A DNA stretch of 64,000 bases. Source: Mycobacterium seoulense (GTDB lineage: Bacteria > Actinomycetota > Actinomycetes > Mycobacteriales > Mycobacteriaceae). The number at the start of each line of letters is the position of its first letter. The first letter of the stretch is position 1. The position numbers and the translations under genes are program-made. Shown one piece after another: positions 34,581 through 53,562 of this stretch. The stretch is taken from the NCBI RefSeq assembly GCF_010731595.1, contig NZ_AP022582.1:1178001-1242000 (forward strand), written 5' to 3'. A model generated the notes under the pieces. The model saw nothing but the letters and a program-made list of their open reading frames with translations, searched no databases and had not been told where the DNA came from.

Positions 34581-34685
34581 GATGACGCCGTTTACGCGCC
34601 GGTCAATTCCCAGCGGACTAGACTTCCGGCTAGCGATGCGGCTGAACCTGTCAGGCCAAATCTTCGTCACCAAGGGGTGGGACCA

Positions 34686-35747
34686 ATGAGCGTCGTCGCG
34701 GGCGTATTCGGTGCGTTGCCGCCGTATCGGTACTCGCAGCGGGAGCTCACCGACTTCTTCGTCAGCATCCCGGAGTTCGACGGCTACGAGGACATCGTCC
34801 GGCAGCTGCACGCCAGCGCCAAGGTCAACAGCCGGCACCTGGTGCTGCCGCTCGAGCGCTATCCCACCCTGACCGACTTCGGCGTGGCGAACCGGATCTT
34901 CATCGACAACGCCGTCGACCTGGGCTGCGAGGCGCTGTCGGGCGCGCTGGACGAGGCGGGCCTGCGCCCGCAGGACCTGGACGCGCTGATCACGACGACG
35001 GTCACCGGCCTCGCGGTGCCCTCGCTGGACGCCCGGATCGCGGGGCGGCTGGGCCTGCGCGACGATGTGCGCCGGGTGCCGCTGTTCGGCCTGGGCTGCG
35101 TGGCCGGGGCCGCCGGCGTGGCCCGGCTGAACGACTACCTGCGGGGCGCACCGGACGCCGCCGCGGCCCTGATCTCGGTCGAGCTCTGCTCGCTCACCTA
35201 CCCCGGATACCAGCCGTCGCTGCCGGGCCTGGTCGGCAGCGCGCTGTTCGCGGACGGGGCGGGCGCGGTGGTGGCCGTCGGGGAGCGCCGCGCCGAACAG
35301 GTAGCCGCCCGCGGGCCCGCGATCCTGGACTCCCGCAGCACGCTGTATCCCGACTCGCTGCGCACCATGGGCTACGACGTCGGCGCGGCCGGATTCGAGC
35401 TGGTGCTGGCCAAGGACCTGGCCCAGGTGGTCGAGGAGCACATCGAGCAGGACGTCTCCGGGTTCCTCGGGGCGCACGGGCTCACGACGACCGACATCGG
35501 CGCCTGGGTCAGCCACCCCGGCGGCCCGAAGATCATCGACGCGATCAACGCGAGCCTGGGCCTGCCGCCGGATGCGCTGGAGCTGACCTGGCGGTCGCTG
35601 GGCGAGATCGGCAACCTCTCGTCGGCCTCGGTGCTGCACGTGCTGCGGGACACCCTGGCCAAGCCGCCACCCAGCGGAAGCCCCGGCCTGATGATCGCGA
35701 TGGGTCCGGGATTTTGTTCCGAACTCGTCCTGCTGCGCTGGCACTGA
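34686..35747 (+). CDS. pks10: Type III polyketide synthase (Pks10-like)
   Basis: Chalcone-synthase-like homodimeric enzyme, 353 aa, that takes an acyl-CoA or acyl-ACP starter and extends it with malonyl-CoA, typically to alkyl pyrones or resorcinols. The thiolase-fold triad is complete: Cys138 ([11 protein letters not shown]), His277 (SHPGGPK) and Asn310 (GNLSSAS). ATG at 34686 after AAGGGGTGGG is preferred to the GTG at 34677. The 105 bp upstream contain TAGACT (34619-34624), a possible -10. It opens the pks cluster, 85 bp before pks7, and has a close paralogue at the other end (pks11). In M. tuberculosis, pks10 has been linked to phthiocerol dimycocerosate levels; the direct product here is unknown. 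Confidence 0.94.
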
Positions 35748-35832: not shown

Positions 35833-38800
35833 ATGACCGGCACCTCCGAAGAACTCGTCCAGGCCCTCCGTGCGGCGCTGAAGGACAACGAGCGGCTGAA
35901 GCGGGAGGCCCGCGAATACCTCACCGCGGCAACCGAACCCGTGGCGGTGGTCGGGATGGCTTGCCGCTATCCGGGGGGTGTGGATTCCCCGGAAGCCCTG
36001 TGGCAGATGGTGGTCGAGGGCCGCGACGTGGTCTCGGACTTCCCGGCGGACCGGGGCTGGAACCTGGCGGGGCTGTTCGATCCCGACCCCGACGCGGTGG
36101 GGAAGTCCTATGCCCGGTGCGGCGGCTTCCTGGCCGACGTGGCCGACTTCGACGCCGCGTTCTTCGGCATCGCGCCCAGCGAGGCGCTGGCGATGGACCC
36201 GCAGCAACGCCTGCTGCTGGAGGTGTCCTGGGAGGCGTTGGAGCGGGCCGGGATCGACCCCGCCGAGTTGCGCGGCTCGGCGACGGGCGTGTTCGCCGGG
36301 ATCTTCCACGGCTCGTATGGGGGCCAGGGCCGGGTGCCGGGGCACCTGGAGCGCTACGGCTTGCGCGGGTCGACGTTGAGCGTGGCGTCGGGCCGGGTGG
36401 CCTACTCGCTGGGCCTGGAGGGCCCGGCCGTCTCGGTGGATACGGCGTGTTCGTCGTCGCTGGTGGCCCTGCACCTGGCGGCGCGGTCGCTGCGCGCCGG
36501 CGAGTGCGACCTGGCGCTGGCCGGCGGCGTGACGGTGATGGCCACCCCGGCGATGTTCGTCGAGTTCAGCCGGCAGCGGGCGCTGGCCGCCGACGGGCGG
36601 TGCAAGGCCTATGCGGGTGCCGCCGACGGCACCGGCTTCTCCGAGGGCGTCGGCGTGCTGGTGCTGGAACGGCTGTCCGACGCGCGCCGGCTCGGCCATC
36701 GAGTGCTGGCGTTGCTGCGCGGCTCGGCGGTCAATCAGGACGGCGCCTCGAACGGGCTGGCGACGCCCAACGGGCCCTCGCAGCAGCGGGTGATCCGGGC
36801 CGCGCTGGCCGACGCGCGGCTGAGCAGCGCGGACGTCGATCTGGTGGAGGGTCACGGGACCGGCACCACCCTCGGGGATCCGATCGAGGCGCAAGCGGTT
36901 CTGGCGACCTACGGGCAGGACCGGCCGGCCGACCGGCCGCTGTGGCTGGGGTCGATCAAGTCCAACATGGGCCACACCTCGGCGGCGGCCGGCGCCGGCG
37001 GGGTGATCAAGATGGTGCAGGCGATCCGGCACGGGGTGATGCCGAAGACGTTGCACGTGGATGTGCCCACGCCACACGTGGATTGGTCGGCGGGCGCGGT
37101 GTCGCTGCTGACCGAGGCGCGGCCATGGCCGACGGAGGACCGGCCGCGTCGCGCCGGGGTGTCGTCCTTCGGGATCAGCGGCACCAACGCGCACGTCATC
37201 GTCGAGCAGTCACCGCAGGAGACCGAAAGCCCCGCGCCCGCCGGCGATGACGCGCCGGCGCCATGGGTGCTGTCGGCCCGGTCGGCCGACGCGCTGGCCA
37301 ACCAGGCGTCGCGGCTGCTGGCGCGGGTGAGCGACGACCCGGGCCTGCGCATGGTCGACGTGGCCTGGTCGCTGGTTTCGACGCGTTCACTGTTCGAGCA
37401 CCGGGCCGTGCTGGTCGGCGGCGACCGCGAGCGCCTGCTGGCGAGGTTGGCCGAAGTGGCCGTCGGCGCGCCGGGAGCGGGCGCGGTGGTGGGCCGGGCG
37501 CAACCGGTGGGCAAGACGGTGTTCGTGTTCCCCGGCCAGGGCTCCCAATGGGTCGGCATGGGAGCCGAATTGCTCGACCGTTCAGTGATTTTCGCCGAGC
37601 ACCTGCAGCGCTGCGAGAAGGCGCTCGCCGAACACGTGGACTGGTCGCTGCTCGACGTCATCCGCGGGACGCCCGGGGCGCCGGGGCTGGACCGGGTCGA
37701 CGTGGTGCAGCCGGCCCTGTGGGCGGTCATGGTGTCCCTGGCCGAGTTGTGGCGCTCGCTCGGCGTGGTCCCCGACGCGGTGATCGGTCATTCGCAGGGG
37801 GAGATCGCGGCGGCGTACGTCGCGGGGGCTCTTTCGCTGGAGGACGCCGCCAGGGTGGTGGCGCTGCGGAGCCGGCTGCTGGTGGGGCTGTCGGGTGCGG
37901 GCGGCATGGTGTCGCTGGCCTGCGGCCAGGCCAGGGCCGAAGAACTGATCGCCGAGTGGGGCGATCGGTTGAACATCGCCGCCGTCAACGGCGTTTCGGC
38001 GGTGGTGGTGTCCGGCGAGGTGGCGGCGCTCGACGGGCTGATGCGGCGCTGCGAGGCCGACGACGTCCGCGCCCGCCGGATCGACGTCGACTATGCCTCC
38101 CATTCCCGGCACGTCGACGCCATCCGCGCGGCGCTGGCCGAGGCGCTGGCCGGGATCGAGCCGCGGTCGTCCTCGGTCGCGTTGTTCTCCACGGTGACCG
38201 GCGAACTCCTGGACACCGCGGGCCTGGACGCCGACTACTGGTATCGCAGCATCCGGCAAACGGTGCAGTTCGAACGGGCGGTGCGCAACGCGTGCGGCGC
38301 CGGCTATGGCGTGTTCGTCGAATCCAGCCCGCACCCCGTGCTGCTCGCCGCCGTCGAGGAGACGCTGGCCGACTGCGGCCACGATGCGATCGTGGTCCCG
38401 TCCCTGGGCCGCGATGACGGTTCCCTGCAACGGTTTTGGCTTTCGGCCGGTCAGGCCCACGTGGCCGGCGTGGCGGTGGACTGGCGCGCCGCCATCGCCG
38501 GGCTGGGCGGGCGGCGCGTGGACTTACCGACGTATGGCTTCGCGCGGCAGCGGTTTTGGCTGCCCGGCGGCGCCACCGGGTCGGGCGACGTGGCCACCCT
38601 GGGGCTGGCGGGCGCGCAACACGCGCTGCTGGGTGCGGTGGTGGCGCGGCCCGATTCCGGTGGGGTGGTGCTGACGGGCCGGCTGTCCACGGCCGCCCAG
38701 CCGTGGCTGGCCGACCACGCGGTGGGCGGCACGGTGTTGTTCCCCGGTGCGGGATTTGTGGAACTGGCCGTCCGCGCCGGTGACGAGGTCGGCTGCGCCG

Positions 38801-41800
38801 TCCTCGAGGAGCTGACGTTGTCGGCGCCGTTGGTGCTGCCGGCCGCGGACGGTGTGCAGGTGCAGGTGGTGGTCGGTGCCGCCGCCGAGTCGGGCCGGCG
38901 CGGGGTGTCGGTGTATTCGGCCGGCGCGCAGTCGGAGTGGGTGCTGCACGCCCAGGGCCTGTTGGGCGCGGCTGCGGTCGCGCCGGCCGCCGACATGTCG
39001 GTGTGGCCGCCGGTGGGGGCGACGCCGGTGGAGGTGGGCGACGCCTACGCGCGGCTGGCGGAGCGGGGCTACGAGTATGGCCGGGCATTCCGCGGCCTGC
39101 GCGCGATGTGGCGGCGGGGCGACGAGATCTTCGCCGACGTCGCCCTGCCGGACGACGCCGGCGCGCAGGACGGCGGGTTCGGCATCCACCCGGTGCTGCT
39201 GGACGCGGCGCTGCACGCGATCGGTGTCGCCGCCGAGCAGACCCAGACCGTGCTGCCGTTCTCCTGGCAGGGGGTGTCGTTGCACGCGGCGGGCGCGTCG
39301 CGGGCGCGGGTCCGGATAGCGCCCGCGGGCGCCGGGGCGGTCTCGGTGGAATTGGCCGACGGCTCCGGTCTGCCGGTGTTGTCGGTGCGCTCGCTGGCGA
39401 TGCGCCCCGTTTCAGCCGAGCAGTTGTCCCTCGCGGCCGCACCCGCCGAGGGACTGTTCGAGGTGGCGTGGTCGCCAATCGCGTTGACGGGCAACGGCTT
39501 CAGTGCGGATGCCACGGTGTGGGAGCCGGTTGCGCACGCCGGTGACGCCGCGCGATCGGTGCACGCGGCGACCACCGAGGCGCTGGGCGTGCTGCAAACC
39601 TGCTTGGGCGATGCCGGGTCGCCGGTGTTGGTGGTGCAGACCCGGGGCGCGGTCGCGCTCGCCGGTGAGGACGTCACCGACCTGGCCGGCGCGGCGGTGT
39701 GGGGCCTGGTGCGCTCCGCCCAGGCCGAGCATCCCGGCCGGGTGGTGTTGATCGACTCCGACGGATCGCTCGACGCGCGGGCCGTGATCGGGTGCGGCGA
39801 GCCGCAGTTGGCCGTCCGCGCGGGCGTGGCCTACGCGGCCCGGATGCGGCCGTTACGACGGGGTTCGGTGCTCCGGCTTCCGCCCGGGGGGTGGCGGCTG
39901 GATGCCGGCGGCGGGGGCACGCTGGAGGACCTGGTGGTGAGCCCGTGCCCGCGGCCCGAACTGGAGGCCGGGCAGGTCCGGGTGGCCGTGGCCGCGGTCG
40001 GGGTGAACTTCCGCGACGTGCTGGTCGCCCTGGGCATGTATCCCGGCGGCGGCCAATTGGGGGCCGAGGGCGCCGGCGTGGTCGTCGAGGTCGGCCCCGG
40101 GGTGACCGGGCTGGCGGTCGGCGATGCGGTGATGGGGCTGCTCGGCGTCGTCGGTGCCGAAGCGGTGGTGGATCAGCGCCTGGTGACACCGGTGCCGGAG
40201 GGCTGGTCGCTGGTGACGGCCGCGGGGGTGCCGGTGGTGTTCCTCACCGCGCTCTACGGGTTGTCGGTGCTGGCGGGGTTGCGCCCCGGCGAGCGGGTGC
40301 TGGTGCACGCCGCCACCGGCGGGGTGGGCATGGCCGCGGTTCAGCTGGCGCGCCATTGGGGCGCGGAGGTGTTCGCCACGGCGAGTCGCGGCAAGTGGGA
40401 CACCTTGCGCGCGATGGGATTCGACGACGACCACATCGGTGATTCGCGGACGCTGGACTTCGAGGAGAAGTTCACGTCGGCGACCGGCGGGGCCGGGGTA
40501 GACGTGGTGCTCAATTCGCTGGCCGGTGACTTCACCGACGCGTCGCTGCGGCTGCTGGCTCCCGGCGGGCGTTTCATCGAGATGGGCAAGACCGACGTCC
40601 GCGATCCGGACGTCGTCGCCGAACGGTACCGGGGCGCGCAGTATCGCGCCTTCGACCTGATGGAGGCCGGCGCCGACCGCACGGCGGCGATGCTGGCCCA
40701 GATCGTGCAATTGCTGCGGGACGGGGCCCTGGAGCCGCTGCCGCTCAAGACGTTTGACGTCCGCTGCGCCTCGGCGGCCTACCGGTTCGTCAGCCAGGCC
40801 CGCCACATCGGCAAGGTCGCGCTGACCGTTCCGACCGGGCCCGGCGCGGTGCTCAGTGGGTGCGGCGGGCTGGCCGGCGGCAGCGTGGTGATCACCGGCG
40901 GCACCGGCATGGCGGGTTCGGCGCTGGCCCGCCACCTCGTCGAGCGCTACCGGGTGGCCCACGTGGTCCTGGCCAGCCGCGCCGGCGCCGGGGCGGCGGG
41001 GGTCGCCGAGTTGGTGGAGCGCCTGCAGGAGGCCGGCGCCGGCGTGTCGGTGGTGGCCTGCGATGCCGCGGACCGCGACGCGGTCGCGGCGATGCTGGCG
41101 CAGATACCGCGGCAGTATCCGCTGCGCGGAGTGGTGCACGCGGCCGGCATCCTCGATGACGGGCTGGTCTTGTCGTTGACGCCGGAGCGGCTGGACGCGG
41201 TGTTGCGGGCCAAGGTCGACGGGGCGTGGCACCTGCACGAGCTGACGCGGGAGCTGGATTTGTCGGCGTTCGTGGTGTTTTCGTCGATGGCCGGCATCGT
41301 GGGCACCCCCGGCCAGGCCAACTACGCGGCGGCCAACAGTTTCCTCGACGGGCTGGCCGCGTATCGGCGTGCGCGCGGGCTGCCGGGTCTTTCGCTGGCC
41401 TGGGGCCTGTGGGAGCAGGCCTCGGCGATGACGGCCCACCTCGGCGAGCGTGACAAGGCCCGGATGAGCCGGATCGGGATCGCGCCGCTGTCGACCGAGC
41501 AGGCACTCGAGTCGTTCGATGCCGCCATGCTGACCGAGGCCCCGGTGCTGATGGCCGCCCGCCTGGACCGGGTCGCCTTGTCCGACAACGCCGCCGGGCT
41601 GCCCCCGCTGTTGAGCGAGCTGGGCGCCCGTACCACCCGGCGCGTCATCGACGACGCCGATACGACCGCCCTGATGACCGGCCTGACGGCGCGGCTGCAC
41701 GGCCTGACCCCCGAGGCGCGGCAGCGTGAACTGGTCGACCTGGTCTGCGGCAATGCGGCCACCGTGCTGGGGCTGCCGAATCCCGCCGACATCAACGCCG

Positions 41801-42204
41801 GCCGCGCATTCCAGGACCTGGGCTTCGATTCCCTCACCGCCGTCGAGCTGCGCAACCGGCTGAAAACCGCCACCGGGCTGACGCTTTCGCCCACGCTGAT
41901 CTTCGACTATCCGACCCCCGCGGTGCTGGCCGGGCACCTGGACACCCAACTGGCCGGCGCGGGGCCGGACGACCAGCCGGACCTGATGGCGCGCTTCACC
42001 GACATCACCCGCGAACTGCAGGCACTGCTCAGCCGGCCCACTTGGGCCGCGGGCGACAGATCGGCGCTGCGGGCCCGCCTGCACACCCTGCTCGCCACCC
42101 TGGCCCCTGACGATCACCCCGACACCGAAGGCCTGGACTCCGACCTCGATGCCGCCACCGAAAGCCAACTCTTTGCCATCCTCGACGAAGAACTCGGCCG
42201 CTGA
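35833..42204 (+). CDS. pks7: Type I PKS, complete reducing module KS-AT-DH-ER-KR-ACP (Pks7-like)
   Basis: 2123 aa, one module. An N-terminal docking helix (residues ~4-30, [20 protein letters not shown]) precedes KS (from ~37; Cys206, His341, His381). AT (~562-880) has Ser654 in GHSQGE and YASH at 754-757, which with RVDVVQ predicts methylmalonyl-CoA. DH: His962 in a full HxxxGxxxxP and Asp1124. ER lies between DH and KR, with NADPH motif near 1496. KR has GGTGMAG (~1689), Tyr1831 and an LDD (B-type) motif. ACP Ser2000 (LGFDSL). The C-terminal tail [15 protein letters not shown] looks like a docking segment. No thioesterase. Predicted to add one fully reduced, alpha-methyl-branched two-carbon unit per cycle. 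The next gene starts 8 bp after its stop. Confidence 0.95.
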
Positions 42205-42211
42205 GACCGCG

Positions 42212-45200
42212 ATGCCGGATACCTCGCAGCACGTCGACTACCTGAAACGCCTGACGGCCGATCTCAGGCGGGCGCGCCGACGCGTCTCGGAGCTGGAAGG
42301 CCAGCTATCCGAACCGATCGCGGTGGTCGGCATGGCGTGCCGCTACGCGGGCGGGGTGGATTCCCCGGAATCCTTGTGGGACTTGGTGAATGACGGCCGT
42401 GACGCGGTATCCGACTTCCCGTCGGACCGCGGCTGGGATGTTGAGGGGCTCTACGACCCGGATCCCGACGCGGCGGGCAAGATGTACACCCGCCAGGGCA
42501 GCTTTCTGCGCGACGCGGCGGACTTCGACGCCGGATTCTTCGGGGTCGGGCCCAGTGAGGCCCTGGCGATGGATCCCCAGCAGCGGCTGATGCTGGAGAT
42601 TTCGTGGGAAGCGTTGGAGCGGGCGGGAATTGACCCACTGGCGCTGCGCGGCTCGGCGACCGGGGTGTTCGCCGGTGTCATCCACGCCGGCTACGGCGGC
42701 GAGGTGAAGGGCGAGCTGGAGGGGTACGGGCTGACCGGTTCGACCCTCAGCGTGGCCTCGGGCCGGGTGTCCTACGTGCTGGGCCTGGAAGGCCCAGCGG
42801 TGTCGGTGGATACGGCGTGTTCGTCGTCGTTGGTGGCGATGCATCTGGCGGCGCAGTCGCTGCGCTCCGGGGAGTGCGACCTGGCGCTGGCCGGCGGCGT
42901 GACCGTGATGGCGACCCCGGCCGCGTTCGTGGAGTTCAGCCGGCAGCGGGCGCTGGCCCCGGACGGCCGGTGCAAGGTGTACGCGGGTGCGGCGGACGGC
43001 ACGTCGTGGTCGGAGGGTGCCGGCGTCCTGGTGCTGGAGCGGCTGGCGGACGCGCGGCGGCTCGGGCATCCGGTGCTCGCGGTGCTGCGGGCCACCGCGG
43101 TGAACCAGGACGGCGCCTCCAACGGCCTGACCGCGCCCAACGGGCCGTCCCAGCAGCGGGTGATCCGCGCCGCGCTGGCCAACGCCGGTTTGACCACCGC
43201 GGACGTCGACGTGGTCGAAGGCCACGGCACGGGAACGGTTTTGGGTGACCCGATCGAGGCCCAGGCCCTGCTGTCGACGTACGGGCAGGACCGGCCGGCG
43301 GACCGGCCGCTGTGGCTGGGGTCGATCAAGTCCAACATCGGTCACACCTCGGCCGCGGCCGGAGTGGCCGGGGTGATCAAGATGGTGCAGGCCATGCGGC
43401 ACGGGGTGATGCCCAAGACGCTGCACGTGGACGTGCCGTCACCGCACGTGGATTGGTCGGCGGGCGCGGTGTCGCTGCTGACCGAACCCCGGCCGTGGCC
43501 GGCGCGGGACGGCCGCCGCCTGGCGGGGGTGTCGTCGTTCGGGATCAGCGGCACGAACGCCCACGTGATCGTCGAGCAGCCCCCGGATGAGCCGGAAACC
43601 GTTGCAGTGCAAGGTGATCCACCGGATCCCGTGGTGGCCTGGGTGGTGTCGGCCCGGTCGGCCGACGCGCTGGCCGCCCAGGCCGCGCGGCTGTCGGCCC
43701 GGCTGGACGCCGAGCCGGGCCTGCGGGCCGTGGACGTGGGCTGGTCGCTGGCCACCACCCGGGCGGCCCTGGAACACCGCGCGGTGCTGGTGGGCGCCGA
43801 CCGCGACACCCTGGCCGCCGGGCTGGCGGGCGTGGCGGCCGGACGGCCCGGCCCGGGCGTGGCGGTCGGGCGCACCCGCGCCGTCGGTAAGCGCGCGTTC
43901 GTGTTTCCCGGCCAGGGTTCGCAGCGGCTCGGGATGGGACGGGACCTGCACGGGCGCTTCCCGGTGTTCGCCGAGGCCTTCGACGAGGCCGTGGCGGCGG
44001 TGGACGCCCACGCGCGGCTGCCGCTGCGCGACGTGATGTGGGGCAGCGACCCGGAGCTGTTGCAGAGCACGGAATTCGCCCAGTCGGCGTTGTTCGTGCT
44101 GGAGATCGCACTGGCTGCCCTGTGGCGGTCCTGGGGCGTGACACCCGACGTGGTGATCGGCCATTCGGTGGGGGAGATCGCCGCGGCCTGCGTCGCCGGC
44201 GTGTTGTCGCTGCCGGACGCGGCGCGGGTGGTGGCGGCCCGCGGCCGGTTGATGGCCGCACTGCCGGCCGGCGGGGTGATGGTGGCGGTGACCGCCACCG
44301 AGGCCGAGGTCGCGCCGCTGCTGAACGGCGACGTGAGCATTGCGGCGGTCAACGGCCCCGAAGCGGTGGTGCTGTCCGGCGAACGGGCCGCGGTGACGAG
44401 TGTGGCGGATCGGCTGACCGAGCGCGGCAGGCGGGTGCGGCAGCTGGCCGTCTCGCACGCGTTCCACTCGCCGCTGATGGAACCCATCATCGAGGAGTTC
44501 GCCGCGGTGGTGGCCGGAGTGTCACCCGGCGCGCCGCGAATCGACCTGGTGTCCAACGTGACCGGGCAACTGGCCGGGCCGGGATACGGATCCGCCGACT
44601 ATTGGGTCGAGCACGTGCGCCGCCCGGTGCGGTTCGTCGACGGTGTGCGCGGGGCCGAATCACTGGGCGCCGGCACGTTTTTGGAGGTGGGCCCGGGCGC
44701 GGCGCTGACGGCGGCGGTGGAACAGTCCCTGGCGGCCGAGCCGGCCGTCGCGGCGGTGTCGATGCCCAAGGACCGCCCCGAGATCGAGGCGCTGCTGCTG
44801 GCGGCGGGGCAGCTGTTCGTGGCCGGCGCCGACGTGAATTGGGCCGCGGTGTACGCCGGCCTGCCCGCCCACCGGGTCGACCTGCCGACGTATGCCTTTC
44901 AGCGGCGCAGGTTTTGGCTTCCGACCGAGTCGGTGGGCGCCCGCGACACCGCCGGCCTGGGGTTGGCGGCGGCCGGGCATGCGCTGCTGGGCGCGGTCGT
45001 CGAGCGGCCCGATTCGGGCGGCGTGGTCCTGACGGGCCGGCTGTCGACGGCGGCCCAGCCCTGGCTGGCCGATCACGCGGTGACCGAGACGGTGTTGTTC
45101 CCCGGCGCGGGGTTCGTGGAGCTGATGCTGCGGGCCGGCGACGAGGTGGGCTGTCCGGTGATCGAGGAGCTGATGCTGTCGGCCCCGTTGCCGCTGCCGG

Positions 45201-48200
45201 CCGCGGGCGCGGTACGGGTGCAGGTGGTGGTGGATGCCCCCGACGAGAGCGGAACCCGTTCGGCGGCGGTGTATTCGCAGGCCGGGTCGCAGTGGACGGC
45301 GCATGCCCAGGGTGTGCTGAGCGAAGGCTCGCCCGCGCCGGCTGCCGACCTTTCGGTGTGGCCGCCGGTCGGCGCCACGGCGGTCGACGTGACCGGCGCC
45401 TACGATGATTTGGCCGCGCGCGGCTACGGGTACGGCCCCGCCTTCCGGGGTCTGCGCCAGGTGTGGCGGCGTGGTGCCGAGATCTTCGCCGAGGTGGAGG
45501 CCCCGCAGCAGGCCGGCGTGACGGTGGGCGGCTTCGGGATTCATCCGGTGGTGCTGGACGCGGCCTTGCATGCCCTGGGGGTGGCCGACCAGGGGGCCGA
45601 GACCGTCCTGCCGTTCTCCTGGCAGGGGGTGTGTCTGCATGCGGCCGGGGCGTCGCGGGTCCGGGTGCGGCTTGCGCCGGTCGGCAAGGGCGGCGTGTCG
45701 GTCGAACTCGCCGATCCCTCGGGCCTGCCGGTGCTGTCGGTCCGGGAGTTGGCGACGCGTCCGGTCTCGGCCGCGCAGCTGTCGGCGGCCGCGGCGGCGC
45801 GATCCGGGGGCGGCGAGTTGCTGGAGGCGGTCTGGTCGCCGGTTCGGTTGCCCGACAACGGCACCGGCGCGGCCCCCGAGGTGTGGCGGCCGCCGCTGCA
45901 TGCGTCGGGGGTGGTCGGATCGGTGTACGCCGCCACCCATGAGGCGTTGCGTGTCCTGCAGTCCCGCGGTGATGGGGCCGGGCCGTTGGTGATCCTGACC
46001 CATGGCGCCGTCGCGCTGCCGGGCGAAGACGTGTCGGACCTGGCCGGCGCGGCGGTGTGGGGGCTGGTGCGCTCGGCGCAGGCCGAGCATCCGGGCCAGG
46101 CGGTGCTGGTCGACTCCGACGGATCCCTGGACCTCGGTTCCGTGCTCGGCTGTGGTGAGCCGCAAGTGGCGGTGCGCGAGGGGGTCGCCTACGGCGCCCG
46201 GTTGAAGCCGCTCACGGCGCACCCGGTGTTGCGGGTGCCCGAGGCGCCGTCGGTCTGGCGGCTGGCCGCCGGTGCGGCCGGGACGCTGGAGGACCTGGCG
46301 GTGCAGTCCGGCCCGCCCGCGGAACTGGCGGACGGCCAGGCGCGGGTGGCGGTGGCGGCGGCCGGGGTGAACTTCCGCGACGTGTTGGTGGCGCTGGGGA
46401 TGTATCCGGGCGCCGCGCAGTTGGGCGCCGAAGGCGCCGGGCTGGTGACCGAGATCGGCCCCGGTGTAACGGATCTGGCCGTCGGTGACGCGGTCATGGG
46501 AATCTTGGGCCTGACCGGGTCCGAGGCGGCCGTCGATCGGCGGCTGGTGACGCGGGTTCCGCCGGGCTGGTCGTTCGCCGAGGCCGCGGGAGTGCCGGTG
46601 GTGTTTCTGACCGCGTATTACGGGTTGTCGGTCCTGGGCGGCTTGCGGGCCGGTGAGCGGGTGCTGGTGCACGCCGCCGCGGGCGGGGTGGGCATGGCGG
46701 CCGTGCAGCTGGCCCGGCACTGGGGCGCCGAGGTTTTCGCGACCGCCAGCCGCGGCAAGTGGGACACCCTGCGCGCCATGGGTTTTGACGACAAGCACAT
46801 CGCGGATTCGCGAACGCTGGACTTCGAGGACGAGTTCTCCATCGTCACGGGCGGTGCCGGAATGGACGTCGTGCTCAACTCGCTGGCCGGCGAGTTCACC
46901 GACGCCTCGCTGCGGTTGTTGGCCCCCGGCGGGCGATTCATCGAGATGGGTAAGACGGACCTACGCGACCCGGCGGTCCTCGCCGCATCCGGTATCGGCT
47001 ACCGCGCGTTCGATCTGATGGAGGCCGGACCCGACCGCATCGCCGAGATGCTGGCCGAGCTGATGCGGTTGTTCGCCGCCGGGGTGCTGACGCCGCTGCC
47101 GGTCAAGGCCTTTGACGTGCGGCGCGCCGCAGACGCTTACCGCTTCGTCAGCCAGGCCCGCCACATCGGCAAGGTCGTGCTGACCATGCCCGACGGGCCC
47201 GCCGGGCTGGCCGGCGGCACCGCACTGATCACCGGCGGGACCGGCATGGCGGGTTCGGCGGTGGCTCGCCACCTGGTCGAGCGTTACCGGGTGCCGCACG
47301 TCATGCTGGTCAGCCGCAGCGGTGAGCGGGCCGACGGGATGTCCGGTCTGGTCGCCGAACTGCGCGACGCCGGGGCCCAGGTGTCGGTGGTGGCCTGCGA
47401 CGTCGGCGACCGGGACGCCGTGGCCGGGCTGCTGGCGCGGGTCCCGGCGCATCTCCCGCTGCGCGCGGTCTTCCATGCCGCGGGCGCGCTGGACGACGCG
47501 ATGATTGCGTCGCTGACGCCGGAGCGCATCGACACGGTGCTGCGGTCCAAGGTCGACGGGGCGTGGCACCTGCACGAGCTGACCCGGGAGCAAGATCTCG
47601 CGGCATTCGTGATGTTTTCCTCGATGGCGGGGATCGTCGGCGCCCCGGGGCAGGGCAACTACGCGGCCGCCAACAGCTTCCTCGACGCGCTGGCGGCGTA
47701 CCGCCGCGCCCACCGGTTGCCCGGCTTGTCCATCGCCTGGGGGATGTGGGAGCAGGCGTCGGCCATGACCGAGCACCTCGGCGACCGCGACAAGGCCCGG
47801 ATGAGCCGCGCCGGGCTCGCCGCGCTGCCCACCCGGCAGGCGCTCGGCCTGCTCGACGCCGCGCTGCTGGCCGAGCCGCCGGTCGTCGTGGCCACCCGGC
47901 TCGATACCGCCGCGCTGGCGCACGCCGGCGCCGCGCTGCCGCCGCTGTTGAGCCAGTTGGCATCTCGGCCGGCGCGGCGGGTGCTCGACCCCACCGACAT
48001 GGTGTCGCTGACGGGCCTGCGGGCCCGGCTGGAGGGCCTGGGCCCCGAGCAGCGTCGCCGCGAGCTGGTCGAGCTGGTCTGCGACAACGCCGCCACGGTG
48101 TTGGGGCACAGCACCGCGGACGTCAACCCCGAGCACGCCTTCGCCGATCTCGGCTTCGACTCGCTGACCGCCGTGGAGCTGCGCAACAGGCTCAAGATCG

Positions 48201-48550
48201 CGACGGGACTGACCCTTTCGCCGACGCTGATCTTCGATCACCCCACGCCCGCGGCGCTGGCCGAGCATCTCGACGGGCAGCTGACCACCGGGACCACCGG
48301 CGAGCCGCCCGACCGGTTGGCCCGCTTCAACGACGTGGCCCGCGAACTGCAGGCGCTGCTCGGCCAAGGCGACTGGAGTCCCGGTGACAAAGCGCAGCTC
48401 GTCACCCGGCTGGAAGGCCTGCTGAACAGCCTGACCGGCCCCGGGCAGGTGCCCTATTCGGAGCCCGCCGACGACCTGTTCGACGACGACATCGCCACCG
48501 CCACCGAAAGCCAGCTCTTCGCCATCCTCGACGAGGAGATCGGCCCCTAG
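42212..48550 (+). CDS. pks8: Type I PKS, complete reducing module KS-AT-DH-ER-KR-ACP (intact Pks8/Pks17-like)
   Basis: 2112 aa, one module corresponding to M. tuberculosis Pks8 plus Pks17 (about 1602 + 502 aa) in one frame. N-terminal docking helix [20 protein letters not shown], then KS (Cys203, His338, His378). AT has Ser652 in GHSVGE and HAFH at 749-752, predicting malonyl-CoA, unlike Pks7. DH keeps His955 and Asp1116, but the motif glycine is Glu959 ([10 protein letters not shown]). ER NADPH motif is near 1491. KR: GGTGMAG near 1675, Tyr1817, LDD motif. ACP Ser1984. The C-terminus [15 protein letters not shown] resembles that of Pks7. ATG at 42212 is used; the frame is open to 42149 inside pks7. 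In M. tuberculosis, pks8/pks17 mutants lose monomethyl-branched unsaturated fatty acids, so an acyl-chain role is plausible. Confidence 0.95.
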
Positions 48551-48551
48551 C

Positions 48552-51500
48552 ATGACGGACGTCGCGATCATCGGTCTCGCCTGCCGATTCCCCGGCGCGG
48601 AAAATCCGCGCGAGTTCTGGGAGGTCCTCCGCGACGGTCGCGAGGCGACGCGGCTGCCCGGCGACGTCGCCGAGTTCGACGCCGACTTCTTCCACGTCTC
48701 GCCGCGCGAGGCGTGCGCGATGGACCCCCGCCAACGGCTGGCGCTCGAACTGGCCTGGGAGGCATTCGAAGACGCCTTCGTGGCGCCGGAAACGATGCGC
48801 GGCGAGGCGATTTCGGTGTACGTCGGTGCTATGGCCGACGACTACGCCGTGCTGACGCTGCGCGACATCGCCGACAACCTGGACCACCACTCGTTCGCCG
48901 GGATCAGCCGGGGGATGATCGCCAACCGGATCTCGTATGCGTTCGGGTTGCACGGGCCCAGCATGACCGTCGACTCCGGGCAGTCGTCGTCGCTGACCGC
49001 GGTGCACCTCGCCTGCGAGAGCCTGCGTACGGGCGAGTCGGCGCTGGCGATCGCCGGCGGGGTCCACCTCAACCTGGCCGACGAAACCGCGATGCTGGAA
49101 CGCGAATTCGGCGCGCTGTCGACATCGGGTCACACCCACGCGTTCGATCGACGCGCGGACGGCTACGTGCGGGGCGAGGGCGGGGGACTGGTGCTGCTCA
49201 AGCCGTTGCCCGCGGCCCTGCGGGATGGGGACCGCATCCACGCGGTGATCCGGGGCAGCGCCGTGGGCAACGCCGGGCACAGCGCCGCGGGCCAGACGGT
49301 GCCCTCGGTTTCCGGGGAGGCCGACGTGATCAGGCGGGCACTCGCCGCCGCCGGCCTGGGCAGCGGCGACATCGACTTCATCGAGGCCCACGGCACCGGC
49401 ACCAAGGTCGGCGACGACGCGGAGGCCAGTGCGCTGGGCGAGGTGTTCGGTGCGCGCGGGCGCCCGCTGAACGTGGGTTCGGTGAAGACCAACATCGGCC
49501 ACGCCGGCGGCGCCGCGGGAATCGCGGGCCTGCTCAAGGCCGTGCTCGCGCTGACGCATCCGGTGATCCCGCCGAGCCTCAACCACGCCGGCGCCGATCC
49601 CGAACTCGAGCGCCTGGGGCTGCGGGTCAACACCGCCGCGCTGCCGTGGCCGGTGGCCGACCGACCGCGCCGCGCCGGGGTGTCGTCGTTCGGCATGGGC
49701 GGCACCAACGCGCACGTCGTCGTGGAACAAGCTCCCGCGCAACCGGATACGCCCGCGGACGCGCCCGACCGGCCGGTGGCGTGGGTGCTGTCGGCCCGAT
49801 CCGAGCAGGCGCTGGCCAACCAGGCGCGCCGCCTGGCGGCGTGGGCGGCCGACCCGGGGGTGACCCCGGCGGACGTCGGGTGGTCGTTGGTGACGACGCG
49901 CTCGGTGTTCGACCATCGGGCGGTCGTCGTGGGCGGCGATCGCGAGGCGCTGACGCGCGGCCTGGCCGGCGTGGCGGCCGGGGAGCCGGCGCCCGGTGCG
50001 GTGGTCGGCCGCGCCGGCCCGGCGGGCAAGACGGCCTTCGTGTTCCCCGGCCAGGGCTCGCAATGGCCCGGGATGGGCCGCGAGCTCCATCACCGGTTCC
50101 CGGCCTTCGCGCACGCCTTCGACGAGGCCGCGGCCGCGGTGGACGCCCACCTGCGGGCGCCGGTGCGCGACGTGATGTGGGGCGACGACGCGGAGTCGTT
50201 GCGGGACACCGAGTTCGCGCAGCCGGCGCTGTTCGTGCTCGAGGTGGCCCTGGCCGCGCTGTGGCAATCGTGGGGTGTGACACCCGACGTGGTGCTGGGC
50301 CATTCGGTGGGGGAGATCTCGGCGGCGTGTGTGGCGGGCGTGTTGTCGCTGACGGACGCGGCGCGCGTCGTGGCGGCGCGTGGCGAATTGATGGCCCGGT
50401 TGCCGGCGGGCGGGGTGATGGTGGCGGTCAGCGCCGCCGAGGCCGAGGTGGCCCAGATGCTGACCGCGGGTGTCGGCATCGCGGCGGTCAACGGCCCCAA
50501 CGCGGTGGTGCTGTCCGGTGAGCGCGCCGCGGTGGGCGCAACGGTGGATCGCCTGGCGGGCGCCGGCCGGCGGACGCACCGGTTGGCGGTCTCGCACGCC
50601 TTTCATTCGGCATTGATGGAACCGATGCTCGACGCGTTCTCACAGAGGGTCGCCGACGTCGGACCGCGGCAGCCGCGAATCTGCCTGATTTCCAACGTGT
50701 CCGGCGAACCGGCCGGCCCGGGGTACGGGTCCGCGCGGTATTGGGTCGACCATGTGCGCCGGCCGGTGCGGTTCCTCGACGGCGTGCGTGCCGCCGAGGC
50801 CCTGGGGGTAACGGCGTTCCTCGAGGTGGGCCCGGGCGGTGGGTTGAGCGCGGCGGTGGATCAGTCGCTGACCACCGAGCGGCCGGTCTCGGTGGTCACC
50901 ATGCCCAAGGGCGGTCCCGAGATCGAGTCGACGCTGCAGGCGGCCGGCCGGCTGTTCACCTCCGGGGTGGGCGTGAGCTGGCCTGCGGTGTTCACCGGCT
51001 CGCGAGCGCGCCGGGTCGACCTGCCGACGTATGGCTTTGCGCGGCAACGATTCTGGCTGGGAAGCGGACGGGATACACTGCCCGCCAAGGCAACCCGCGC
51101 CCCGGACCTGGCCGAGCAGTTGCACGCCCTGCCCCCCGCGGAGCAACTGCGGCGGCTGGTCGAGCTGGTCTGCGGGCACGCCGCCGCCGTCTCGGGGCAC
51201 CCGGGCGGCCGTGCCATCGACCGCGACCGCGCCTTCGCCGACCTCGGATTCGACTCGCTGACCGGCGTCGAACTGCGCAACCGGCTCACGACGGCAACCG
51301 GCCTGGCCCTGCCGCGCACCCTGATCTTCGACTACCCCACCCCCGCGGCCCTGGCCGATCTGCTGCGGCAGCAACTGTTCCGCGGCGACGACGGCGAATC
51401 CGACGAGGAGAAGTTGTGGTCTTCGCTGCGCAGGATTCCGCTCGCCGAGCTGCGCAGGACCGGATTGCTCGACAAGCTTCTGTTACTGACCGGTGAAGCG

Positions 51501-51605
51501 GAAAGCCCTGGCGCCGAACCGGAAATCGACATGATCGATTCGCTGAGTCCCGAGGCGTTGGTCGCGATGGCGCTCCACTCGACGGACGACGAGGGCGCCA
51601 AATGA
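48552..51605 (+). CDS. pks9: Type I PKS KSQ-AT-ACP, predicted loading module (Pks9-like)
   Basis: 1017 aa, domains KS-AT-ACP only. The KS starts at residue 2 (TDVAIIGLACRFPGA), so there is no N-terminal docking helix. The active-site block reads VDSGQSSSL where VDTACSSSL is normal: Cys is replaced by Gln144, while His280 (EAHGTG) and His317 (NIGHAGG) are kept. This is the KSQ type, which decarboxylates ACP-bound malonate to make an acetyl starter. AT Ser585 (GHSVGE) with HAFH at 682-685 predicts malonyl-CoA, as required. ACP Ser902 (LGFDSL). A long C-terminal extension (~935-1017; LWSSLRRIPLAELRRTGLL, then DSLSPEALVAMAL) resembles class 1a docking tails. ATG at 48552 is 1 bp after the pks8 stop. 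Confidence 0.93.
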   Translation: MTDVAIIGLACRFPGAENPREFWEVLRDGREATRLPGDVAEFDADFFHVSPREACAMDPRQRLALELAWEAFEDAFVAPETMRGEAISVYVGAMADDYAVLTLRDIADNLDHHSFAGISRGMIANRISYAFGLHGPSMTVDSGQSSSLTAVHLACESLRTGESALAIAGGVHLNLADETAMLEREFGALSTSGHTHAFDRRADGYVRGEGGGLVLLKPLPAALRDGDRIHAVIRGSAVGNAGHSAAGQTVPSVSGEADVIRRALAAAGLGSGDIDFIEAHGTGTKVGDDAEASALGEVFGARGRPLNVGSVKTNIGHAGGAAGIAGLLKAVLALTHPVIPPSLNHAGADPELERLGLRVNTAALPWPVADRPRRAGVSSFGMGGTNAHVVVEQAPAQPDTPADAPDRPVAWVLSARSEQALANQARRLAAWAADPGVTPADVGWSLVTTRSVFDHRAVVVGGDREALTRGLAGVAAGEPAPGAVVGRAGPAGKTAFVFPGQGSQWPGMGRELHHRFPAFAHAFDEAAAAVDAHLRAPVRDVMWGDDAESLRDTEFAQPALFVLEVALAALWQSWGVTPDVVLGHSVGEISAACVAGVLSLTDAARVVAARGELMARLPAGGVMVAVSAAEAEVAQMLTAGVGIAAVNGPNAVVLSGERAAVGATVDRLAGAGRRTHRLAVSHAFHSALMEPMLDAFSQRVADVGPRQPRICLISNVSGEPAGPGYGSARYWVDHVRRPVRFLDGVRAAEALGVTAFLEVGPGGGLSAAVDQSLTTERPVSVVTMPKGGPEIESTLQAAGRLFTSGVGVSWPAVFTGSRARRVDLPTYGFARQRFWLGSGRDTLPAKATRAPDLAEQLHALPPAEQLRRLVELVCGHAAAVSGHPGGRAIDRDRAFADLGFDSLTGVELRNRLTTATGLALPRTLIFDYPTPAALADLLRQQLFRGDDGESDEEKLWSSLRRIPLAELRRTGLLDKLLLLTGEAESPGAEPEIDMIDSLSPEALVAMALHSTDDEGAK

Positions 51606-51732
51606 CGAAATCCCAACGCAATTGGGCACATGTCGAATACGCCGAGTTTTTGCCGGAGTACTCGGATCGGCCTACACTTCAGGAATTGGCTCAAGTCCCG
51701 TTTGAGCTGGGATGCAAGCAAGAGGGTGGGGC

Positions 51733-52794
51733 ATGAGCGTCATTGCGGGTCTGTTCGGAGCGTTGCCGCCGCATCGTTACAGCCAGGCCGAAATCACCGA
51801 TCAGCTCGTCGAATTCCCCGCTCTCAAAGAGCACGAGGGGGTCGTCCGGCGGTTGCACGCCGCCGCCAAGGTCAACAGCCGTCACCTGGTCCTGCCGCTC
51901 GAGCGCTACCCGTCGCTGACCGATTTCGGTGAGGCCAACGAGATCTTCATCGAACACGCCGTCGACCTCGGCTGCGAAGCGCTGCTGGGCGCGCTCGACG
52001 AGGCCGGCCTGCGGCCGGAGGACATCGACATGATCGCCACCACCACGGTGACCGGCGTCGCGGTGCCGTCGCTCGACGCGCGGATCGCCGGGCGGCTCGG
52101 CCTGCGCCCGGATGTGCGCCGGATGCCGCTGTTCGGGCTGGGCTGCGCGGGCGGGGCGGCGGGAGTGGGCCGGCTGCACGACTACCTGCGCGGCGCGCCG
52201 GACGGCGTCGCGGTGCTGGTGTCGGTCGAGCTGTGCTCGCTCACCTTCCCGGCGGTCAAGCCGACCGTATCCGGCCTGGTGGGCACCGCCATGTTCGGCG
52301 ACGGCGCGGCCGCCGTGGTCGCCGTCGGCGACCGTCGCGCCGACCGGCTGAGCCCGGACGGGCCCGACATCGTCGATTCCCGCAGCCGCCTCTACGCCGA
52401 CTCGCTGCACATCATGGCCTGGAACGTGAGCTCGGCCGGGCTGCACCTGGTGATGGCCCCGGAGCTGACCAATCTCATCGACCGCCACCTGGCCGACGAC
52501 GTGAGCCGGATCCTGGGCCCCCACGGCCTGACGAAGGACGACATCGGCTCCTGGGTGGCGCATCCCGGCGGCCCCAAAGTCATCAACGCGATCGCCAACA
52601 GCCTCGAGCTGCCCCCCGATGCCCTCGAGCTGACCTGGCGGTCGCTGGGCGAGGTCGCGAACCTGTCGTCGGCGTCGGTGCTGCACATCCTGCGCGACAC
52701 CATCGCCAAGCCGCCGCCGGGCGGAAGCCCGGGGCTGATGGTGGCGCTGGGCCCGGGGTTCAGCTCCGAGCTCGTGCTGTTGCGCTGGCGCTGA
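51733..52794 (+). CDS. pks11: Type III polyketide synthase (Pks11-like)
   Basis: 353 aa, colinear with Pks10, with the same triad positions: Cys138 ([11 protein letters not shown]), His277 (AHPGGPK) and Asn310 (ANLSSAS). The two type III enzymes differ around the active site (GCVAG versus GCAGG, GFCSEL versus GFSSEL), so starter preference may differ. ATG at 51733 follows AGAGGGTGGGGC; the frame is open to 51712 without homology. It lies 127 bp after pks9 and ends the plus-strand cluster, 5 bp from the convergent SGNH hydrolase. The nearest M. tuberculosis gene by position and residues is pks11 (Rv1665). It probably makes a long-chain alkyl pyrone, but the product is inferred from family only. 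Confidence 0.93.
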
Positions 52795-52799
52795 GCCGG

Positions 52800-53555
52800 T
52801 CAGCTCGCCCCCGCGGGGGAGTCCAGGAAGCCTTGCACGGCATCGGTGAGAATTCGGCCGCCGCGGGTGTTCAGGTGGATGCCGTCGATGTGAAACTCCC
52901 ATCCGTTCATCCGGGAGATCTCGTCGAAGCTGCGCCGCAGCAGCGCCTCCCGGATCAGATAGTCGCGGTAGAACGACGGGAAAGAGAACCGGGTGAACGG
53001 CTTGGCGGTGTTGGCGCGGACCAATTGGTCCTGGAAGGCTTCGAAGAACCCGATGTAGTCCGTCCCCTCGCGCGACGCCACCGCCCGGATCGCGTCGTTG
53101 TAGGCGGCGCATTCGTGGTTCAGCCGCGCCTGAACGACGTGCCGGGAATGCGGGTCTTCCCCCACGGGCGCAAGGGAACTCAGCGCGATCCGGGCGTCGG
53201 TCTCGTGCCGCAACCTGCGCGTGATGATTGCCAGGGTCTCCTCGAACCGCGGCGCGCTCGGCTCGGCGGGCAGCCCCTTCCACACCCGCACCACCCTGCG
53301 GAAGTTGGGAAAGACGCTGGCCAGAATGTCGTTGGTGCCGATCAGGACGATCACCCGGTCGGGCCGGCTGGCCGTCACGCGGCGCAGCCGCCGAATGGTG
53401 TTGAACGACAGGTCGCCACCCACGCCGAAATTCAGGAATCGGAACCGCCCGTTGCGCGGCCGGCCCTCCAGTTCGGCGATCCACCGATAGGTTCCCTTGG
53501 CCGCGGTGGTGCTCGAGCCGACGCATGCCACCGTTTCGGGGAAGTCGGAAGTCAC
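52800..53555 (-). CDS. SGNH/GDSL-type hydrolase
   Basis: Cytosolic hydrolase of 251 aa. SGNH blocks: block I is CVGSSTTAAKG (GSS in place of GDS, nucleophile Ser kept), block II NFGVGGD, block III IGTNDILAS and block V DGIHLNTRGG with the catalytic Asp-x-x-His. No signal peptide. Substrate unknown; the family cleaves acyl esters and thioesters. GTG at 53555 is used; the frame is open to 53729 inside the ABC-F gene but homology starts at TSDFPETVACVGSS. It lies 7 bp downstream of the ABC-F gene and converges with pks11. M. tuberculosis has cyp139A1 at this place, so this is a local gene replacement. Confidence 0.85.
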   Translation of the reverse strand: MTSDFPETVACVGSSTTAAKGTYRWIAELEGRPRNGRFRFLNFGVGGDLSFNTIRRLRRVTASRPDRVIVLIGTNDILASVFPNFRRVVRVWKGLPAEPSAPRFEETLAIITRRLRHETDARIALSSLAPVGEDPHSRHVVQARLNHECAAYNDAIRAVASREGTDYIGFFEAFQDQLVRANTAKPFTRFSFPSFYRDYLIREALLRRSFDEISRMNGWEFHIDGIHLNTRGGRILTDAVQGFLDSPAGAS

Positions 53556-53562
53556 AGTCGCA

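What the first reader, a model, noticed from the sequence alone, without database searches (positions are those of the whole stretch)
48552..51605. Pks9 is a KSQ loading module
The KS active-site Cys is replaced by Gln144 (VDSGQSSSL), both catalytic His are kept, the AT has the malonyl-type HAFH motif, and there is no N-terminal docking helix. Together these define a decarboxylative loading module (KSQ-ATmal-ACP) that makes its own acetyl starter. The gene is third among the type I PKS genes and would normally be described as an incomplete extension module.
Basis: partly seen in the sequence, partly recalled or inferred. Interest (0 to 1): 0.85.

Follow-up and report, generated by a model that had tools for sequence, protein, structure and literature searches.

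The report
Pks9: self-starting mycobacterial PKS loader
A small mycobacterial polyketide synthase, Pks9, looks like an ordinary decarboxylating starter module that makes its own acetyl primer; its docking tail suggests it feeds the neighbouring enzymes Pks7 and then Pks8, which gives a testable first scheme for a gene cluster whose type I product is not known to us.

Summary
Codon 48981-48983 is CAG, Gln144, in VDSGQSSSL; His280, His317, a malonyl-type AT (HAFH) and ACP Ser902 are present; the KS starts at residue 2-4 without a docking helix. Gln144 is kept in 195 of 195 Pks9-like proteins and in 48 of 48 fetched genome copies covering the site, so it is no sequencing error. The best solved relative is a GfsA KSQ-AT chimera, and the KS lies inside one KSQ group (22 of 22, support 99). 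Pks9 is a KSQ-ATmal-ACP loading module, a known kind. Added here: (1) its C-terminal docking tail belongs to the class of Pks7's head, and Pks7's tail to that of Pks8's head; the class rule held in 27 of 27 held-out pairs. Predicted order Pks9 -> Pks7 -> Pks8, against gene order 7-8-9. (2) A mosaic: KS of KSQ lineage, AT shared with Pks8. (3) One genome has a second KSQ-ATmal-ACP fused to a Pks7-like methylmalonyl module. (4) Most Pks9 KS domains lack about 27 N-terminal residues. Decarboxylation is inferred, not shown.

The parts
48552..51605 (+). pks9: KSQ-AT(malonyl)-ACP-docking tail, 1017 aa
48552..49733 (+). KSQ domain (residues 1-394)
48981..48983 (+). CAG = Gln144 in place of the KS active-site Cys
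49389..49391 (+). His280 (EAHGTG), first catalytic His of the KS fold
   Evidence: H in 195 of 195
49500..49502 (+). His317 (NIGH), second catalytic His
   Evidence: H in 195 of 195
48663..48668 (+). point (between residues 38 and 39) where about 27 residues present in the GfsA KSQ chain are missing
50031..50921 (+). AT domain, malonyl type (GHSVGE Ser585, Arg610, HAFH 682-685); 73% identical to the Pks8 AT
51156..51377 (+). ACP domain, Ser902 (LGFDSLTGVE)
51378..51602 (+). C-terminal docking tail of class a (holds IDSLSPEALVAMAL near its end)
35833..42204 (+). pks7: KS-AT(methylmalonyl, YASH)-DH-ER-KR-ACP, class a docking head, class b tail; predicted receiver of the Pks9 starter
42149..48550 (+). 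pks8: KS-AT(malonyl, HAFH)-DH-ER-KR-ACP, class b head and class b tail; real start probably 42212
34677..35747 (+). pks10: type III PKS upstream of pks7
51712..52794 (+). pks11: type III PKS downstream of pks9

Best explanation
Pks9 is a free-standing decarboxylative loading module. Its AT loads malonyl from malonyl-CoA onto its own ACP; its KSQ domain, which cannot form the acyl-cysteine needed for condensation, removes CO2 to give acetyl-ACP; its C-terminal docking tail brings the acetyl-ACP to the N-terminal docking helix of Pks7. Pks7 adds a methylmalonyl unit and Pks8 a malonyl unit, both with full reducing loops, so the assembly order is Pks9 -> Pks7 -> Pks8 although the genes lie 7-8-9. 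One pass would give a 4-methylhexanoyl chain (anteiso pattern). Shown: the residues, their conservation, the KSQ grouping, the docking classes. Inferred: decarboxylation, the actual docking, the extender units, the product.
For: Gln144, His280, His317 and the AT His in 195, 195, 195 and 194 of 195 proteins; Gln in 48 of 48 fetched genome copies covering the site. Best PDB match is 9iyw, named GfsA KSQ-AncAT. KS tree: 22 of 22 KSQ rows are one side of a branch, support 99, the 8 Pks9 rows 100. Pks9 KS dN/dS median 0.215 over 20 loci, so under purifying selection. Docking: nearest-neighbour classes built on 23 labelled pairs gave 27 of 27 held-out adjacent pairs as a-a (8) or b-b (19), p = 4.5e-7; Pks9 tail a, Pks7 head a, Pks7 tail b, Pks8 head b; in the window and 20 loci no parsed head or tail fell in the other class. 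AT motifs: Pks8 and Pks9 HAFH in 21 of 21 loci (window included), Pks7 YASH in 20 of 20 that reach it. Order pks7-8-9-11 in 20 of 20 fetched loci. In G064 a second KSQ-AT(HAFH)-ACP is fused in one frame to a KS-AT(YASH) closest, of those compared, to Pks7 (71%).
Against: No activity data. Pks9 KS lacks about 27 residues near its N-terminus that the GfsA chain keeps, effect unknown. Pks9 KS is about 2.4 to 2.7 times less constrained than the KS of Pks7 and Pks8. The ACP Ser is not found in 7 of 195 and the AT motif is not HAFH in 12 of 195. A protein of the same genome that I take for Pks12 (by size, recalled) also has a class a head; a finer test between it and Pks7 was not significant (17 pairs, rho 0.34, p 0.18), and the fused module of G064 is nearly as close to that Pks12 module (68.5%) as to Pks7 (71%).
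Confidence: 0.84

Rival explanations
1. Pks9 decarboxylates malonyl-ACP, but its acetyl goes elsewhere (for example to Pks12, or as a diffusible acetyl donor), not to Pks7.
For: The protein taken for Pks12 in the same genome has a docking head of the same class; the fine test cannot tell it from Pks7.
Against: pks9 lies downstream of pks7-pks8 in 20 of 20 fetched loci, in L136 with about 3.8 kb between; Pks12 has its own class a tail, like the tail of an unrelated pair (L018) whose head is like that of Pks12.
Confidence: 0.1
2. Pks9 is a decaying or inactive protein kept only as a scaffold.
For: Higher dN/dS than its neighbours' KS, loss of an N-terminal KS segment, 7 of 195 without the ACP Ser.
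Against: KS, AT and ACP catalytic residues kept in 188 to 195 of 195; median dN/dS about 0.2 in KS and ACP and 0.3 in AT; the apparent TGA of three genomes is not internal: none is seen up to residue 1015.
Confidence: 0.05
3. Pks9 is an incomplete extension module.
For: Domain order KS-AT-ACP is that of a minimal extension module.
Against: No active-site Cys in 195 of 195; no N-terminal docking domain to receive a chain; the KS groups with KSQ.
Confidence: 0.01

Closest known systems
KSQ loading module of GfsA (PDB 9iyw, named GfsA KSQ-AncAT; 7vee, 7vef and 8in9 are named only 'polyketide synthase' and recalled to be GfsA)
   Same: Gln in place of Cys (8in9 carries Cys at the site), KS His pair, AT with HAFH in the same order; best sequence matches in the PDB
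   Different: Pks9 lacks about 27 residues after residue 38 and begins directly at the KS; its AT is close kin of the Pks8 AT
KSQ domains of Streptomyces, Amycolatopsis, Goodfellowiella and others found here (such as L008, L017, L030, L064)
   Same: KS up to 59% identical (median 56% over 16), one KSQ group in the tree
   Different: In several of these loci the next extension KS follows about 3 kb on, perhaps in the same protein (not tested); Pks9 is a separate protein whose gene lies behind those of its predicted partners
Mycolactone loading modules (MlsA1, MlsB) of M. ulcerans
   Same: Loading modules in the same genus that start with acetate or propionate (PMC3720922, passages)
   Different: Part of giant proteins; the passages do not say which residue stands at the KS active site, and the sequences were not fetched
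KSS loading modules of nystatin and amphotericin
   Same: Loading decarboxylases (PMC12843615, passages); that NysA is a stand-alone protein is recalled
   Different: Ser instead of Gln

Membership tests
KSQ-type decarboxylative loading module | Gln in place of the KS active-site Cys | tested here: met
   195 of 195 proteins; 48 of 48 genome copies covering the site
KSQ-type decarboxylative loading module | Both KS catalytic His kept | tested here: met
   H280 and H317 in 195 of 195
KSQ-type decarboxylative loading module | AT that takes a dicarboxylic unit (malonyl): active Ser, Arg for the carboxylate, HAFH (motif meanings recalled) | tested here: met
   Present in the window; Ser 194, Arg 193, HAFH 183 of 195
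KSQ-type decarboxylative loading module | ACP with phosphopantetheine Ser | tested here: met
   PF00550; Ser902 in 188 of 195
KSQ-type decarboxylative loading module | KS domain groups with KSQ, not with extension KS | tested here: met
   22 of 22 KSQ rows on one side of a branch against 51 Cys rows, SH-aLRT 99 (quick tree without bootstrap)
KSQ-type decarboxylative loading module | No upstream docking domain | tested here: met
   KS starts at residue 2-4; no in-frame start upstream; PF08990 absent
KSQ-type decarboxylative loading module | Complete KS fold | tested here: inconclusive
   About 27 residues missing after residue 38 relative to the GfsA chain; structure job not finished
KSQ-type decarboxylative loading module | Malonyl-ACP decarboxylation without condensation | not testable with these tools
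   Needs enzyme assay
Class a / class b docking pair (DEBS-like) | Pks9 tail and Pks7 head of one class, Pks7 tail and Pks8 head of the other | tested here: met
Class a / class b docking pair (DEBS-like) | Physical binding | not testable with these tools
   Needs binding assay

The most novel reading that the evidence does not exclude
The pks10-pks7-pks8-pks9-pks11 locus is a self-priming hybrid line: Pks9 makes acetyl from malonyl, Pks7 turns it into 2-methylbutyryl, and Pks8, whose own tail and head belong to the same docking class, extends it once or repeatedly with malonyl to give anteiso (single-methyl) chains without isoleucine; the flanking type III PKSs Pks10 and Pks11 then close these chains to methyl-branched pyrones or resorcinols. 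The single methyl would explain why a malonyl-type Pks8 is tied in print (a title) to monomethyl-branched acids.
Probability: 0.3. Interest if true: 0.72.

Novelty: new member of a known kind. Interest (0 to 1): 0.5.

Why it matters
The cluster is found in many mycobacteria (44 near-full Pks9 copies listed among 198 genomes) and probably in the tuberculosis complex, yet I found no product assigned to its type I PKS line as a whole. Knowing that Pks9 is the start, and which protein comes next, fixes the starter unit and the module order, predicts a concrete acyl chain (4-methylhexanoyl or longer anteiso homologues) and says what to look for by mass spectrometry. Reading the genes in order, from pks7, would assume the wrong start.

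Tried and rejected
1. Premature stop: one search listed one TGA in pks9 of G006, G047 and G120; the fetched stretches (L264, L266, L265) align to residue 1015 with no internal stop, so I take it for the normal end.

2. First docking test with fixed motifs (6 a-a, 9 b-b, 0 mixed, 3 unclassified; the motifs were written) and its first held-out run (7 pairs, only 4 classified, all consistent, p 0.25) were too weak and left the Pks7 tail unclassified; replaced by nearest-neighbour classes and 60 newly fetched head regions, of which 27 gave a parseable pair and 33 did not.

3. Telling Pks7 from Pks12 as the partner within class a: not significant.

5. Gokulan 2013 and Dubey 2003 are not held; only their entries in a reference list were seen.

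7. Plasmid collection searched once (221 records, all under 60% identity), of no use. Rfam and the phage collection were not searched.

8. Literature: no paper in the listings was seen to join Pks9 with KSQ or a loading role; listings are capped and the library holds open-licence papers only, so reviews in subscription journals were not seen.

Full report
What was checked. The ORF 48552..51605 encodes 1017 aa. Gln144 is CAG at 48981-48983. Pfam gives KS (2-220 and 230-344), KS-AT linker families, AT (496-806) and ACP (874-938), and no N-terminal docking family, which Pks7 and Pks8 do have. The open frame runs 39 codons upstream but holds no ATG/GTG/TTG there.

Conservation. In 195 Pks9-like proteins (P0001-P0197 without Pks7 and Pks8; two searches, of which the best 120 each were listed) residue 144 is Gln in 195, residues 280 and 317 are His in 195 each, AT Ser585 in 194, AT Arg610 in 193, AT His685 in 194, HAFH in 183, ACP Ser902 in 188. 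Two more partial copies (G007, G165) do not cover it. One partial copy, G015, is only 51-53% identical and may not be a true orthologue. Ten named mycobacterial Pks9 loci have Gln too; L006 and L070, mycobacterial but other PKSs, have Cys. In 32 genomes that match a motif pattern at pks9 the Gln codon is CAA in 18 and CAG in 14 (three further matches, in G057, G161 and G139, were left out as not placed in pks9). A cluster of 3751 sequences of 1017 aa (P0131), 82% identical to the M. decipiens protein, carries the same motif. The window's nearest named protein is from M. seoulense (98%).

Family. The three best PDB matches (E 5e-232 to 1e-225) are 9iyw, named GfsA KSQ-AncAT, and 7vee and 8in9, named only polyketide synthase, with nearly the same KS (8in9 with Cys at the site); that these too are GfsA is recalled. 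In a tree of 73 KS domains the 22 with Gln form one side of a branch with support 99 and the 8 Pks9 rows a clade with support 100 (quick method, SH-aLRT only). KSQ as a decarboxylase that has lost condensation is stated in PMC12843615 (passages).

Mosaic. Pks9 KS is 44% identical to Pks8 KS but up to 59% to KSQ of other actinobacteria; Pks9 AT is 73% identical to Pks8 AT and at most 59% to the AT of the 16 external KSQ modules compared. In a tree of 70 AT domains the Pks8 and Pks9 ATs form one clade (99.5) in which they interdigitate (the Pks9 label needs 5 changes, at least 2 forced by starred branches). This suggests gene conversion or repeated exchange of the AT between the two genes (inference).

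Missing segment. Against GfsA, Pks9 lacks about 27 residues between residues 38 and 39. Of 195 proteins, 157 have the window's length there and 10 are one residue longer; 21 keep 10 to 27 residues more; 7 are shorter by 1 to 16, among them two with nothing aligned there. The catalytic residues are kept throughout, so the loss seems tolerated; its effect is unknown.

Selection. Over 20 syntenic loci compared with the window, median dN/dS is 0.215 for the Pks9 KS, 0.089 and 0.081 for the KS of Pks7 and Pks8, 0.297 for the Pks9 AT and 0.199 for the Pks9 ACP (the odd Pks7 AT values of L126 and L135 and the Pks8 AT value of L138 probably rest on wrong or partial matches and were not removed). Pks9 is under purifying selection but freer than its neighbours, as a domain that need not recognise a growing chain might be (inference).

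Docking and order. From PKS loci outside the mycobacteria I took 24 adjacent gene pairs, labelled 23 by head type, and classed held-out tails and heads separately by nearest neighbour. Of 60 fetched head regions 27 gave a pair; all 27 were a-a (8) or b-b (19), Fisher p = 4.5e-7. By the same rule (score with the class / with the other) the Pks9 tail is a (72/27), the Pks7 head a (102/45), the Pks7 tail b (65/40), the Pks8 head b (96/41), the Pks8 tail b (64/24). In the window plus 20 loci the parser found 18 class a heads of Pks7 type, 19 class b heads of Pks8 type, 19 class a tails of Pks9 type, 37 class b tails of Pks7/8 type and one weak class b tail without the motif (L139); it did not parse every end. 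So the order is Pks9 -> Pks7 -> Pks8. Against certainty: the protein I take for Pks12 (4187 aa frame; name recalled) has a class a head as well, with its own class a tail, and the finer test between the two partners was not significant. The classes resemble published docking classes that I recall; PMC2661021 (passages) describes the DEBS-type four-helix docking.

Chemistry. Pks7 has GHSQGE/YASH (methylmalonyl), Pks8 and Pks9 GHSVGE/HAFH (malonyl) wherever the domain was reached: Pks7 20 of 20, Pks8 and Pks9 21 of 21, window included. Meanings of these motifs are recalled. KS, ER and KR motifs and the DH Asp motif of Pks7 and Pks8 are present; the DH His motif was missed by the pattern and read by eye. 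One pass gives acetyl -> 2-methylbutyryl -> 4-methylhexanoyl. Pks8 head and tail are both class b, so Pks8 could dock to itself and iterate; this is a guess that would fit the title of Dubey 2003 (msl5 = pks8 plus pks17, monomethyl-branched unsaturated fatty acids; title seen only).

A natural fusion. G064 (perhaps M. riyadhense, by the matching protein P0036) has elsewhere a frame of 1871 aa with KSQ, AT HAFH and ACP, then KS with Cys and AT YASH. The KSQ part is about 60% identical to Pks9; of the second part 745 residues are 71% identical to Pks7, 68.5% to the first module of the Pks12-like protein, 69% to a module of L070 and 64% to Pks8. The frame ends soon after the second AT, so the gene may be broken; it is only described.

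Surroundings. pks10-pks7-pks8-pks9-pks11 all run on +; one base lies between the pks8 stop and the pks9 start. The order pks7-8-9-11 is seen in 20 of 20 fetched loci (in L135 the pks7 and pks8 pieces are intermixed by similarity, in L136 about 3.8 kb part pks8 from pks9) and pks10 in 18 of 20; the stretches L126 and L136 do not reach it. PMC5916927 (passages) describes this as the '2x type III pks' cluster, three type I genes between two type III genes, and characterises the type III enzymes of M. marinum; the word pks9 does not occur in it. In the window no P450 gene was found, unlike the cyp139 described beside pks11 of M. tuberculosis and M. marinum.

Verdict. As a thing, Pks9 is an ordinary KSQ loading module; what adds interest is that no paper listed in my searches was seen to record it for this mycobacterial cluster, and that it fixes the start and order of the line.

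Noticed in passing
L276 (G064:C1:3475000-3486000), minus strand: Second KSQ-AT(HAFH)-ACP fused in one frame to a Pks7/Pks12-like KS-AT(YASH); the frame ends soon after the second AT.
   Followed up: partly
P0094, P0102, P0103, P0105, P0106, P0117: Pks9-like proteins of 1045 aa whose AT motif reads LAAH (HAAH in P0117) instead of HAFH and which keep 18 more residues in the KS N-terminal segment; perhaps a different starter unit.
   Followed up: no
window 50031-50921 and 43895-44800: AT domains of Pks8 and Pks9 share one clade and interdigitate between species, as under gene conversion.
   Followed up: partly
window 52800-55332: Beside pks11 lie, on the minus strand, a GDSL-type lipase and a two-domain ABC ATPase; no P450 gene in the window, unlike the cyp139 described next to pks11 in M. 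tuberculosis.
   Followed up: partly
L122:822-3087: Two tandem pks10-like type III PKS genes in front of pks7 instead of one.
   Followed up: no
L136:12156-16000: About 3.8 kb between pks8 and pks9, where the window has one base.
   Followed up: no
G161:C1:3087275, G057:C77:31687 and G139:C145:5707: Further KSQ-like motifs in genomes of the genus, not placed in pks9; not read.
   Followed up: no
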